Positions 7,773 to 51,053 of a stretch of DNA of 64,000 nucleotides are shown here, one piece after another. Source of the stretch: Scylla paramamosain (Eukaryota; Arthropoda; Malacostraca; Decapoda; Portunidae). Positions within the stretch are counted from its first letter, which is position 1. Every line of letters starts with the position of its first letter. Both the position numbers and the translations under genes were made by a program. The DNA is taken from the NCBI RefSeq assembly GCF_035594125.1, contig NC_087168.1:15135650-15199649 (forward strand). The letters are read 5' to 3'. The notes below the pieces were generated by a model. The model searched no databases and had not been told where the DNA came from. It saw only the letters and a program-made list of their open reading frames with translations.

Positions 7773-8328
7773 ATGGATTCTTTTGAGTGTATTTGTGTGT
7801 GGGGGTGTTCTGGGTGTGTGCAGGGTCTTTTGAGTGTATTTGTGTGGGGGTGTTCTGGGTGTGTGCAGGGTCTTTTGAGTGTATTTGAATGTGTGTGGGA
7901 TGTTTTGGATGTATTTGAGTGTGTGGGGGGGTGTTTTGGGTGTGTATGGGGTTTTTTGACTGTATTTAAGTGTGTGTGGGGTGTTTTGGGTGTGTATTGA
8001 GTCTCTTGAGTGTATTTGAGTGTGTGGGGGTGTTTTGGGTTTATATGGGGTCTTTTGAGAGTGTGGGGGGTGTTCTAGGTGTGCGGGGTATTTTGAGTGT
8101 ATTTGAGTGTGTGTGGAGGTGTTTTGGGTGTATATGGAGTCTTTTGAGTGTATTTGAATGCGTGTGGGGGTGTTTTGGGTGTGTGCGGGGTCTTTTGAGT
8201 GAATTTGAGAGTGTGTGGAGGTGTTTTGGGTGTGTGCTGGGTCTTTTGAGTGTATTTGAGTGTGTTGGGGTGTTTTGGGTGTATTTCAGTGTGAGCGGGG
8301 TGTACTCTGTATTATTGGTTGTTTTGGA
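7773..8328 (+). repeat. Minisatellite A (about 50-bp period), U1 copy
   Basis: The monomer reads approximately GAGTGTATTTGAGTGTGTGG, GGTGTTTTGGGTGTG, TATGGGGTCTTTT and repeats about 11 times with indels. The plus strand is almost free of C. Other copies: 16381-16787, 22804-23218, 30824-31236, 39075-39489 and 47494-47680. The near 51-bp period leaves frames open, giving Cys/Val/Gly-rich reading frames that are not believed to be genes. Confidence 0.9.
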
Positions 8329-8406
8329 TCTCTCTCTCTCTCTCTCTCTCTCTCTCTCTCTCTCTCTCTCTCTCTCTCTCTCTCTCTCTCTCTCCCTCTC
8401 TCTCTC
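8329..8406. repeat. (CT)n microsatellite of the unit
   Basis: It follows minisatellite A in U1-U5 (16788-16836, 23219-23278, 31237-31312, 39490-39524) and is deleted in U6. Its length varies from about 35 to 78 bp between otherwise near-identical units. Confidence 0.95.
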
Positions 8407-8660
8407 AGTAGTTACATGGATTTTCAAGTCTGTTTTTACGGTTCCACTGACAGATTAACATTTCTACAATACTAACACGAGAAATATGCTTTTAAAATCC
8501 TCTAGTCGAAGTGACACAGGTTTTTAATGGTGTTTTTATGGTTCTAGTTAAGTCTAGTTAATAAGATAAACGCTTTTGAAAACCCTGCTAATCATCTTTC
8601 TGGCATTAGGAAACAGTCGTAGAGAGAGAGAGAGAGAGAGAGAGAGAGAGAGAGAGAGAG

Positions 8661-9440
8661 TAGAAGCATGTTAGTTAATCCTATCCTGCGCTGGTTCGTG
8701 AGTTTACTGCGGTGACGGGGTGCAGCAGTGAGTGAAATTTCGAATCATAATCACGTAGGGAGTGTTCACTGGGGAAACGTCAGTGACGGTATTTATATTA
8801 TTTGAATTATTACTTGATAACGTGTCAACTTTTGCGTGTGTGTGTGTGTGTGTGTGTGTTGGTGGAGGAGCAGAGTCAGGTGGCGCTTGGCAGGGCGAGC
8901 GGCTGGCTGCAGTGTTTTGGCCGGCGCTGGTCAGTCTTGCCCCACACACTCTGGTAATAAGTGTTTCCGTATTCCCGGCTTCTTCTCCCTGTACCAAGCA
9001 CCGCCACGCATCCCCAGAGAGCCACAAGTATGTAAGGTGAGCCCAGCGGTTCCAGCCTACCCTCAGTCAGCCTTACTGCCTTCCCAGCACCACCTTCCTC
9101 CTCCCTGTAGTGTCTAGTAGCGGTTTATTAAAGTTTTTGTTCGGTATTTAGGTATTTTATGGGGTTATTTATTTATTTTTAGGTTTTGTTTACGTCTGAG
9201 TCTGGAAACAGCTGGAAAATTATGCGAATATTGAAGAATCGTCAATATGTAAACAAGCCGTTAGCGGAGGTACAGGCAGGTCGTCAGTGTATTCAGTCAT
9301 TATTTGCTTCGTCTCTCGCTTATTGTAAGGCTAACATGTCACAAGATAGAGTCACTTGTCTAGCGTTCATATCCGCTGGTGAGATATATCCACCATTGCC
9401 TAGTTTTGGTGTCATGAAGCAATAAATAAGGCAATATGGC
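8661..9440 (+). promoter_or_regulatory. GC-richer core with exon-like 3' end, candidate transcription start region (U1 copy)
   Basis: The core runs from TAGAAGCATGTTAG through a (TG)n at 8836-8859 and a GC-rich stretch (GGCGAGCGGCTGGCTGCAG) to a strong donor-like site, GTAAG|GTGAGC, at 9036/9037. The same donor-like site is intact in every unit (GT at 17457, 23890, 31939, 40146 and 48210). Downstream, TTATTTATTTTTAG at about 9168-9181 resembles an acceptor. The core is the least degenerate part of the unit and is not simple sequence. A promoter with a short first exon is one reading; a chance GC-rich segment is the other. No family match is recognised. Confidence 0.35.
9186..9425 (+). other. 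79-codon open frame kept in all six units, function unknown
   Basis: The frame reads ...MRILKNRQYVNKP, AEVQAGRQCIQSLFASSL, CKANMSQDRVTCLAF and ISAGEIYPPLPSFGV, ending KQ-stop. It has no ATG at its start; the first internal ATG is at codon 13, so the 5' part would have to come from splicing (an AG lies just upstream) or the protein would be about 67 residues. Copies are at 17606-17845, 24039-24278, 32088-32327, 40295-40534 and 48359-48598, all open and all ending at the same stop. Differences include I/F at 12, L/P-to-S near 26, A/G in SSLAYC/SSLGYC (U5 and U6) and M/T near the end. No domain, signal peptide or membrane segment is recognised. An AATAAA lies just after the stop. Confidence 0.3.
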
Positions 9441-9582
9441 CGCCGGCTCCTCCACTGAGGTCCGGGCCGAGGACCTGTTCCGGCCTGTGGGTTCCAATAT
9501 TTTTTTTATATTTTCCTTAATTACTTTATTTGGCTTTTATAGTAAGTTTTTATGGTTTGTAAAAATATTTCGTTGCTGTTGA
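9436..9582 (+). other. 48-codon open frame starting at an ATG in good initiation context
   Basis: The frame starts AATATGGCC in U1 and AACATGGCC in U2-U6. It encodes MAAGSSTEV, AEDLFRPVGSN, then a hydrophobic, F-rich end (LFGFYSKFLWFVKIFRCC) before TGA. The first 60 bases are GC-rich and the rest is AT-rich, so only the start may be coding, perhaps followed by a donor. Corresponding ATGs are near 17856, 24289, 32338, 40545 and 48609. U3 has lost one base (CCTGTGGTTCC), which shifts its frame. The start also resembles a YY1-type site (AACATGGCCGCC). Confidence 0.25.
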
Positions 9583-50400: not shown

Positions 50401-50947
50401 TAAAGTGCAACTACTGAGAGAGAGAGAGAGAGAGAGAGAGAGAGAGAGAGAGAGAGAGAGAGAGCGAGACCATCCTTCATTGAATATTTGAGCTGAGGCT
50501 TCGAGATACGAGGTGAGAATCCATTTTTTAGTGTTTCAAGGCAGTTTTAAGTGTTTGTAGGTGTTTTAAGGCTGTTTTAATGTTGTCTTGAGTATTGTAG
50601 GTTTGTGGATGGAAGGAGAAAGTTTAAATACAGTAATAAGGCCCGGAAAAAAGCTTAAATTATTTTAAAATGATCTTAGCTCTTATTAAAGTGTTTTAAG
50701 TATTTTAGGTCACCAGAAGAAAGGAAGCTTAGATTTAATACTACGATAAGGAAATAGCTTATTTCTTGCATTAGGAAGAGAGAAAAGCTTGATATTACCT
50801 TCCGAACGCCCTCCCCCTTCAGTGAGCCAGGTGACTCCCCGAACAGCGCCAGCCTGCCTACTGTGGTGTTGCAGGCCTGAACGTCCTCCTTCCCTCCCTC
50901 TTCCTCCTCTTCCTCCTCCTCTTTCTCCTCCTTTTCTTCCTCCTCCT

Positions 50948-50973
50948 CTTCCTCCTCCTCCAGGAGGAGGAAG
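50948..50973. repeat. Perfect 12-bp inverted repeat at the right breakpoint of the array
   Basis: CTTCCTCCTCCT, then CC, then AGGAGGAGGAAG forms a 12-bp hairpin with a 2-nt loop. It lies where module K of U6 stops matching other K modules, a few bases before the misplaced core fragment. Confidence 0.85.
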
Positions 50974-50984
50974 TGGAGGAGGAA

Positions 50985-51053
50985 GGGCCTTTTTCACGGT
51001 TATTTTTACCCACCCCGGTTCTTGGCTTTTTTATTTGAGGCTGTAGTGAAGGT
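50985..51053 (+). repeat. Misplaced fragment of the unit's AT-rich/core region at the array end
   Basis: CCTTTTTCACGGTTATTTTT, ACCCACCCCGGTTCTTGG and CTTTTTTATTTGAGGCTGTAGTGAAGG match 9650-9715 of U1 and equivalents, which normally lie several kilobases before a K module. The ACCCACC spelling is closest to U1 (ACCCACCTCGG); inner units have ACCCCCCTCGG. Confidence 0.85.

What the first reader, a model, noticed from the sequence alone, without database searches (positions are those of the whole stretch)
7773..51053. Roughly 43-kb macrosatellite of complex units with full-length units of 6.4-8.6 kb
Six head-to-tail units make up two thirds of the window. Each holds a non-repetitive core, a CRE site and exon-like modules, and is not a short satellite monomer. 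The layout resembles vertebrate macrosatellites of the D4Z4/DXZ4 kind (large promoter-bearing units), but I recognise no homologous sequence. Block order and spacing are seen directly; the comparison is by architecture only.
Basis: partly seen in the sequence, partly recalled or inferred. Interest (0 to 1): 0.85.

Follow-up and report, generated by a model that had tools for sequence, protein, structure and literature searches.

The report
Six-unit noncoding macrosatellite-like array
A 43-kb stretch of what looks like an animal genome is made of six near-identical, apparently non-coding blocks in a row (five complete, 6-9 kb each), with promoter-like and insulator-like motifs, resembling large tandem repeats known from mammals, although no function is shown.

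Summary
Six head-to-tail units fill 7773-51053: five complete (6.4-8.6 kb) and a sixth cut short. Cores are 97.5-99.6% identical. The array is nested: ~10-bp G/T minisatellites, related 'exon-like' modules, an extra 1.6-2 kb segment in U3-U5, then the array. Interior units are closest to each other; 12 of 19 informative sites unite edge units U1 and U6. This fits homogenisation by unequal exchange or conversion. No Pfam domain in six unit ORFs scanned, no Rfam family, no transposon gene found. Each core carries one AGGTGGCGC (CTCF-like), one GCGGCCATNTTG (YY1-like) and one TGACGTCA (CRE), absent elsewhere in the window; DXZ4, FIRRE and ICCE carry paired CTCF-YY1 sites. But the motifs were picked after looking, and agreement among young copies cannot show constraint. 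Evidence for exons is mixed: strong donors are no denser than in flanks, acceptor-donor pairs are. Host, single-locus status, copy-number variation and transcription were untestable; the genome search did not complete. Best reading: a new macrosatellite-type array, kind known, function unproven.

The parts
7773..16380 (+). Unit 1 (8.6 kb): m1 minisatellite, TC spacer, core, m2, module A, f, g, h, B, m3, C, then a second A-f-g-h-m3-C, k, tail
16381..22804 (+). Unit 2 (6.4 kb): the simplest complete unit, m1-core-m2-A-B-m3-C-tail
22805..30821 (+). Unit 3 (8.0 kb): as unit 2 with a second A-B segment; first m3 internally deleted
30822..39073 (+). Unit 4 (8.3 kb): A-B-A-B-C; second m3 shortened; closest to the consensus (1 of the 88 unit-private single-base changes in the 2.7-kb shared stretch)
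39074..47491 (+). Unit 5 (8.4 kb): A-B-A-B-C
47492..51053 (+). Unit 6, truncated: shortened m1 and spacer, full core, m2, partial module A, f, g, then a detached 68-base core fragment at 50984-51051
8661..10440 (+). Core of unit 1 (copies at 17079, 23514, 31563, 39770, 47834); 97.5-99.6% identical between copies
8878..8886 (+). AGGTGGCGC, CTCF-like core motif; same place in all six cores (17298, 23731, 31780, 39987, 48051), nowhere else in the window
   Evidence: motif identity recalled
8931..8936 (+). TCAGTC, arthropod initiator-like; not specific (TCAGTY occurs 39 times on the + strand of the window)
   Evidence: motif recalled
9037..9042 (+). Splice-donor-like AAG|GTGAGC, 105 bases after the initiator-like site; in all six units
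   Evidence: donor density not above flanks
9432..9443 (-). GCGGCCATNTTG, YY1/Pho-like motif; in all six cores, nowhere else in the window
   Evidence: motif identity recalled
10168..10175 (+). TGACGTCA (CRE palindrome); in all six cores, nowhere else in the window; neighbouring bases carry a cluster of edge-versus-interior differences
10441..11167 (+). m2 G/T minisatellite (copies in all six units) with 10.2-bp periodicity of T and G runs
11380..11740 (+). Exon-like module, class A; with classes B and C there are 23 near-complete copies plus one partial in the array
13331..13684 (+). Exon-like module, class C; all six C copies have AT instead of GT at the donor position
15900..16380 (+). AT-rich tail block ending each complete unit (five copies)

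Best explanation
A non-coding macrosatellite-type tandem array. Shown: a composite 6.4-kb unit, itself containing diverged internal duplicates, is present head to tail; a 1.6-2 kb A-B segment is further duplicated in U3-U5; interior copies are more alike than edge copies. Inferred: amplification and homogenisation went by unequal crossing-over and gene conversion between misaligned units, helped by the simple-sequence tracts and G/T minisatellites at which several junctions lie. Inferred and less certain: the core descends from a promoter-bearing segment. No function of the array is needed to explain the anatomy.
For: Unit and block map. In the 2.7-kb shared stretch U2-U5 are 98.8-99.6% identical to each other, U1 and U6 97.7-98.4% to every other copy. 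Of 19 informative sites 12 separate {U1,U6} from {U2-U5}; 34 of 171 site pairs are incompatible with one tree, as exchange predicts. Six of those 12 sites lie within 45 bases (10156-10200) beside the CRE and are the same in all four interior units. Junctions read directly: the U1 C-module runs into a GA tract then a new A module; U6 runs from a GA tract into mid-module A; U3 and U4 have shortened m3; the end of U6 lies at a CT/GGA tract; U6's start joins minisatellite to spacer. Transitions exceed transversions in 11 of 15 pairwise comparisons of the shared stretch, equal in 1, as for real substitutions. No Pfam match at E 0.01 in the six unit ORFs, none in Rfam at gathering score, no tRNA.
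Against: Site-pair incompatibility can also come from recurrent mutation. The star-like distances also fit one rapid burst followed by drift. Transversions exceed transitions in 3 of 15 pairs, all with U5. The edge pattern rests on one array. I could not see whether further copies exist elsewhere in the genome.
Confidence: 0.75

Rival explanations
1. An architectural array working like DXZ4/FIRRE: each core binds CTCF and YY1 next to an internal promoter, and the same-orientation series forms a chromatin boundary and/or makes a non-coding RNA.
For: One AGGTGGCGC, one GCGGCCATNTTG and one TGACGTCA per core, 6 of 6, none elsewhere in the window. In 2000 dinucleotide shuffles of the unit-1 core at least one match occurred in 0.75%, 0.05% and 0.9%. 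The 105 bases from 25 before the CTCF-like motif differ at 3 positions over six copies. DXZ4, FIRRE and ICCE are described as carrying paired CTCF-YY1 sites (passages of PMC6985041).
Against: Motifs were chosen after looking. A looser CTCF pattern occurs in 11% of shuffled cores and at three places outside the array. The short YY1 core GCCATNTT, two per core, is reached in 6% of shuffles. By recalled consensus only the 3' part of the vertebrate CTCF site fits. The YY1-like and CRE windows are not among the least diverse (0.0193 each). Copies are young and homogenised, so six agreeing copies are close to one observation. No binding, RNA or cross-species evidence. GC about 40%.
Confidence: 0.18
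2. A tandem array of non-coding RNA genes: promoter and exon 1 in the core, A/B modules as internal exons, C plus tail as terminal exon.
For: The core donor-like AAG|GTGAGC holds ranks 1-6 (0-based) of 5514 + strand GT sites and the GAGGTGAGA donors of modules ranks 9-19. ACTAAC stands 25 bases before the acceptor and is kept in 22 of 23 near-complete modules. Class C, the last module of each complete unit, has lost the donor GT in 6 of 6. All 23 strong donors in the array are on the + strand. Acceptor-donor pairs 40-300 bases apart: 21 on the array + strand (0.49 per kb) against 5 on 41.4 kb of flanking strand (0.12 per kb).
Against: Strong donors run at 23 per 43.3 kb on the array + strand (0.53 per kb), the same as 22 per 41.4 kb of flanking strand (0.53 per kb). 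Pairs and donors are copies of a few kinds, so their numbers are not independent. One-sidedness is what a G/T-rich strand gives. Class B donors (GAGGTGACA) rank only 286-296 of 5514. The matrices were recalled, not trained. One C copy (13331) is not followed by the tail. AATAAA occurs 80 times on the + strand.
Confidence: 0.15
3. The unit is a non-autonomous transposon or a transposon remnant that amplified in tandem.
For: Minisatellite at the unit start; a LINE abuts the left end. A few non-simple inverted matches exist in the core side (for example 24 bases at 88%, 24049-24072 with 25103-25126).
Against: No transposase or RT match in the six unit ORFs scanned. In unit 2 the 25 longest inverted pairs (of 262) involve the TC/GA tracts; in 23278-27541 four of the 25 longest (of 47; I2, I5, I16, I18) are not plain simple repeats and none sits at unit ends. 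No target-site duplication seen by eye. In the 20.7 kb of flank only dinucleotide-repeat and AT-rich pieces match the blocks.
Confidence: 0.07
4. Assembly artefact: one unit repeated by misassembly or stacked haplotypes.
For: Cannot be excluded without reads.
Against: Units differ by 0.4-2.3% in substitutions with transitions in excess in 11 of 15 pairs, differ in block order, and similarity is graded by position in the array.
Confidence: 0.05

Closest known systems
DXZ4 (X-linked mammalian macrosatellite)
   Same: Tandem multi-kb units without an obvious protein, internal simple repeats including CT, promoter next to CTCF site (passages of PMC3218863), paired CTCF-YY1 sites (passage of PMC6985041); here only motif-like counterparts.
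   Different: No sequence kinship tested. Human array: 50-100 copies of 3 kb (PMC3018141 passage), primate GC 61-65%; here 6.4-8.6 kb, five complete copies plus one partial, about 40% GC. Binding and transcription only inferred here.
D4Z4 and RS447 (human macrosatellites with an ORF per unit)
   Same: Tandem units of several kb.
   Different: Those encode DUX4 and a deubiquitinating enzyme (PMC3018141 passage); no such ORF was found here.
ZAV and SST1 human macrosatellites
   Same: No clear ORF; ZAV has 5.3-kb units, 3-31 copies, microsatellites in the unit, about 2 kb from a gene (PMC3018141 passages).
   Different: ZAV is 60% GC with two CpG islands per unit; polymorphism and expression shown there, not here.
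Crayfish satellite DNAs longer than 100 bp, called macrosatellites in PMC13130569
   Same: Tandem repeats of a decapod genome, if the window is a decapod.
   Different: Family mean units 202-622 bp (PMC13130569 passages), about an order of magnitude shorter, and the word is used in another sense.

Membership tests
Macrosatellite | Head-to-tail tandem array with unit of about 2 to >12 kb (PMC3218863 passage) | tested here: met
   Five complete units of 6.4-8.6 kb, all + strand
Macrosatellite | Array restricted to one or two chromosomal places | not testable with these tools
   Own-genome search did not answer in 7 identical tries
Macrosatellite | Copy number varies between individuals | not testable with these tools
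   One sequence only
DXZ4-like array | Internal promoter, transcribed | tested here: inconclusive
   Initiator-like and splice-like signals only, mixed controls; no RNA data
DXZ4-like array | Paired CTCF and YY1 sites in each unit | tested here: inconclusive
   Motif matches 6 of 6 cores, chosen post hoc, looser patterns near chance; no binding data
DXZ4-like array | High GC and CpG content | tested here: not met
   Unit-1 core 40% GC, CpG observed/expected 0.80; the 43 one-kb windows from 8001 to 51000 are 32-46% GC
D4Z4/RS447-like array | Conserved ORF in each unit | tested here: not met
   No Pfam domain in six unit ORFs scanned; two unit ORFs without relatives in the protein database, at that tool's word and length limits
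Transposon array | Transposase/RT gene in the unit | tested here: not met
   None in six unit ORFs scanned
Transposon array | Terminal repeats and target-site duplication | tested here: inconclusive
   Capped list of inverted repeats in two stretches; junctions read by eye

The most novel reading that the evidence does not exclude
An invertebrate counterpart of DXZ4/FIRRE that arose independently: a tandem series of same-orientation CTCF + YY1 + promoter modules, separated by 10.2-bp helically phased G/T minisatellites that could favour ordered nucleosomes, acting as a chromatin boundary beside a receptor-like gene.
Probability: 0.1. Interest if true: 0.85.

Novelty: new member of a known kind. 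Interest (0 to 1): 0.42.

Why it matters
Why tandem CTCF-YY1 arrays were kept in mammals is described as an open question (PMC6985041 passage). An independent case outside vertebrates would let that be tested without X inactivation. Even without function, the array is a readable record of how complex-unit satellites are built, extended and homogenised, with module classes, junctions and edge units that can be compared.

Tried and rejected
G-quadruplex array: rejected; 1 canonical motif in the 43.3-kb array, 0 in the left and 1 in the right flank. A softer score is somewhat higher in the array (2.35% of 25-base windows above 1.2, against 0.85% and 1.03% in the flanks).

Protein-coding tandem genes: rejected; the four module copies translated (of 23; two A, one B, one C) have at least one stop in each frame, while the 105-base exon-1 stretch (two of six copies) is open in two frames, too short to mean anything. 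Indels among modules are not all multiples of three. No domains in six unit ORFs.

rRNA, snRNA, tRNA unit: rejected; no Rfam match at gathering score and no tRNA.

Selection for helical phase: the 10.0-10.2 bp periodicity of T and G runs is above all 100 dinucleotide shuffles in each of the five blocks tested. Permuting the spacings reaches the observed coherence in 0.9-24.8% of permutations over 12 tests that are not independent, below 5% in 4 of 12, all for G runs. The period is real; selection for phase is not shown.

Purifying selection in the core: diversity in the 27 windows of 100 columns is 0.003-0.031. The window holding the CTCF-like motif (8790-8887) is among the three lowest (0.0034); those holding the YY1-like motif and the CRE are 0.0193. 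Not shown.

Relatives elsewhere: two exact-pattern scans of viral contigs found nothing; two unit ORFs, one of them by residues 1-100 only, found no protein relatives. Papers: ten searches. Macrosatellite with invertebrate (11 papers, 10 listed) or arthropod (3) listed none whose title or abstract start describes an invertebrate array with multi-kb units. Two coral papers use the word once each; I did not open them, nor any paper listed. led to PMC13130569. Other wordings and subscription papers were not covered. A complex satellite of the land crab Gecarcinus is recalled from memory; the one paper listed is on a whale. Of papers I saw passages only: PMC3018141, PMC10454600, PMC13130569, PMC3218863, PMC6985041.
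Full report
WHAT IS THERE. Self-comparison of the window shows long direct matches of 5-8 kb at 93-97% identity on the + strand (150 of 243 rows printed). Six cores of 1.78 kb lie at 8661, 17079, 23514, 31563, 39770 and 47834. From minisatellite start to minisatellite start the units measure 8.6, 6.4, 8.0, 8.3 and 8.4 kb; the sixth is cut short (3.6 kb). Near the end 68 bases of core sequence stand alone at 50984-51051.

ANATOMY. The simplest unit, U2, reads: m1 (G/T minisatellite), TC tract and spacer, core, m2 (G/T minisatellite), short spacer, GA and AC tracts, module A, blocks f, g, h, module B, m3 (G/T minisatellite), module C, block k, AT-rich tail. 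U3, U4 and U5 have a second A-B segment; U1 has A-B-C followed by a second A-C set. Modules A, B and C are related: 23 near-complete copies and one partial. Identity to the first A module is about 90-92% for B and 86-88% for C; within classes it is 92.7-100%, the low values being the second A of U1 and the partial copy of U6. The array is therefore nested, with repeats at about 10 bases, about 1-2 kb and 6.4-8.6 kb.

HOW IT GREW. In the 2.7 kb shared by all six, U2-U5 are 98.8-99.6% identical to each other, while U1 and U6 are 97.7-98.4% identical to every other copy. Of 19 informative sites 12 unite U1 with U6 against the interior; private changes number 26 in U1, 28 in U6, and 6, 10, 1 and 17 in U2-U5. 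Of 171 site pairs 34 are incompatible with one tree. Six of the 12 edge-versus-interior sites lie in 45 bases (10156-10200) beside the CRE. This is the pattern expected when interior copies exchange sequence and edge copies do so less. Junctions that distinguish units lie at GA tracts (U1 at about 13687, U6 at about 50466), in m3 (U3 at about 27650; U4 at about 37804), at a CT/GGA tract (end of U6), and between m1 and spacer (start of U6, about 47671-47682). A single burst followed by drift is not excluded. Transitions exceed transversions in 11 of 15 pairs, equal them in 1 and fall below in 3, all three with U5.

CODING, RNA FAMILIES, TRANSPOSONS. Ten ORFs were scanned against Pfam: four from the left flank gave one hit, a reverse transcriptase at 6123-6854 on the - strand; six from the unit gave none. 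One search scanned five flank sequences: only hits below the curated cut-offs, the best being endonuclease families at E 0.016 and 0.064 for 7446-7769. No Rfam family at gathering score and no tRNA occur in the window. Two unit ORFs found no relative in a database of 5.8 billion proteins, within that tool's word and length limits. Of the inverted repeats, capped at 25 shown per stretch, those of unit 2 involve TC/GA tracts; in 23278-27541 four of 25 are not plain simple repeats.

THE EXON READING. For: the core donor-like site holds ranks 1-6 (0-based) of 5514 + strand GT sites; the 21 exact module acceptors are in the best 0.4-2.7% of 5155 AG sites; ACTAAC is kept 25 bases or so upstream in 22 of 23 modules; acceptor-donor pairs 40-300 bases apart number 21 on the array + strand against 2 and 3 on the two flank strands (0.49 against 0.12 per kb), and strong acceptors run at 106 on the + and 59 on the - strand of the array, 35 and 34 in the flanks. 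Against: strong donors are no denser than elsewhere, 23 in 43.3 kb of array + strand and 0 on its - strand, against 7 and 15 on the two strands of 20.7 kb of flank, 0.53 per kb in both; the array's counts are copies of a few kinds of site; class B donors rank only 286-296; the G/T-rich strand favours such sites. The matrices were written from recall. All six class C modules have lost the donor GT, which fits a terminal exon, but one of them (13331) is not followed by the tail. I hold the exon reading at low confidence.

MOTIFS IN THE CORE. AGGTGGCGC, GCGGCCATNTTG (- strand) and TGACGTCA each occur exactly six times in the window, once per core. Mean numbers in 100 whole-window shuffles are 0.10, 0.00 and 0.48. 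In 2000 shuffles of the unit-1 core at least one match occurs in 0.75%, 0.05% and 0.9%. The first two match what I recall as the CTCF core and the YY1/Pho consensus; no call confirmed these identities. By the recalled consensus only the 3' part of the vertebrate CTCF site fits. The motifs were selected after inspection; a looser CTCF pattern occurs in 11% of shuffled cores and at three places outside the array, and two copies of the short YY1 core are reached in 6% of shuffles. DXZ4, FIRRE and ICCE are described as carrying paired CTCF-YY1 sites (passages of PMC6985041), and beyond New World monkeys DXZ4 sequence conservation is limited to promoter and CTCF site (passages of PMC3218863). The resemblance is a lead, not a test.

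STRAND ASYMMETRY AND PERIODICITY. GC skew is positive in all 43 one-kb windows from 8001 to 51000 (0.036 to 0.661) and of both signs in the flanks. It comes largely from m1-m3 (skew 0.83-0.87; core 0.14, tail -0.02; unit-1 blocks). T and G runs in m1-m3 recur every 10.0-10.2 bases, above all 100 shuffles in each of the five blocks tested; the core's peaks are within its own shuffles. Spacing permutations do not show that phase is maintained by selection.

SURROUNDINGS. To the left lie exon-like pieces at 94-252 and 841-1203 that I recognise from recall as the C-terminal part of an ionotropic-receptor-like gene; the tool support is only a glutamate-receptor chain at E 0.076 and no receptor family in Pfam. 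A LINE on the - strand with an RT domain runs up to the array edge, where its endonuclease-like part stops, by eye, at about 7769. Of its 120 listed relatives (of 7986) most are unnamed; the organisms named are turtles, birds and fishes.

COMPARISON AND VERDICT. By unit size and layout this is a macrosatellite-type array. Single-locus restriction and copy-number variation were not testable. It is unlike DXZ4 in GC content (not met) and unlike D4Z4 in lacking a detected ORF (not met); the CTCF/YY1 and promoter features are inconclusive. A crayfish satellite survey uses the word for units over 100 bp, with family means of 202-622 bp (passages of PMC13130569); the main text of a Decapoda repeat survey does not use the word (PMC10454600). 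I rate it a new member of a known kind, interest 0.42, with a bolder DXZ4-like reading at probability 0.1.

Noticed in passing
10156-10200 and copies: Cluster of six substitutions in 45 bases around the intact CRE that separates edge units U1/U6 from interior units U2-U5; looks like one conversion or multi-base event fixed in the interior.
   Followed up: partly
94-252 and 841-1203: Two + strand exon-like pieces resembling the C-terminus of an ionotropic receptor (recalled; weak tool support), ending 6.6 kb left of the array.
   Followed up: partly
5483-7769: LINE on the - strand, RT domain present, cut in the endonuclease-like part at the array edge.
   Followed up: partly
10441-11167 and the m1, m3 blocks: G/T minisatellites with a 10.0-10.2 bp period, close to the DNA helical repeat; G runs follow T runs by 3.5-5.5 bases.
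   Followed up: partly
about 55280-55650: Very long trinucleotide tract in the right flank, giving homopolymer ORFs in several frames.
   Followed up: no
3986-4182: Unrelated minisatellite of 69-base period (2.9 copies) left of the LINE.
   Followed up: no
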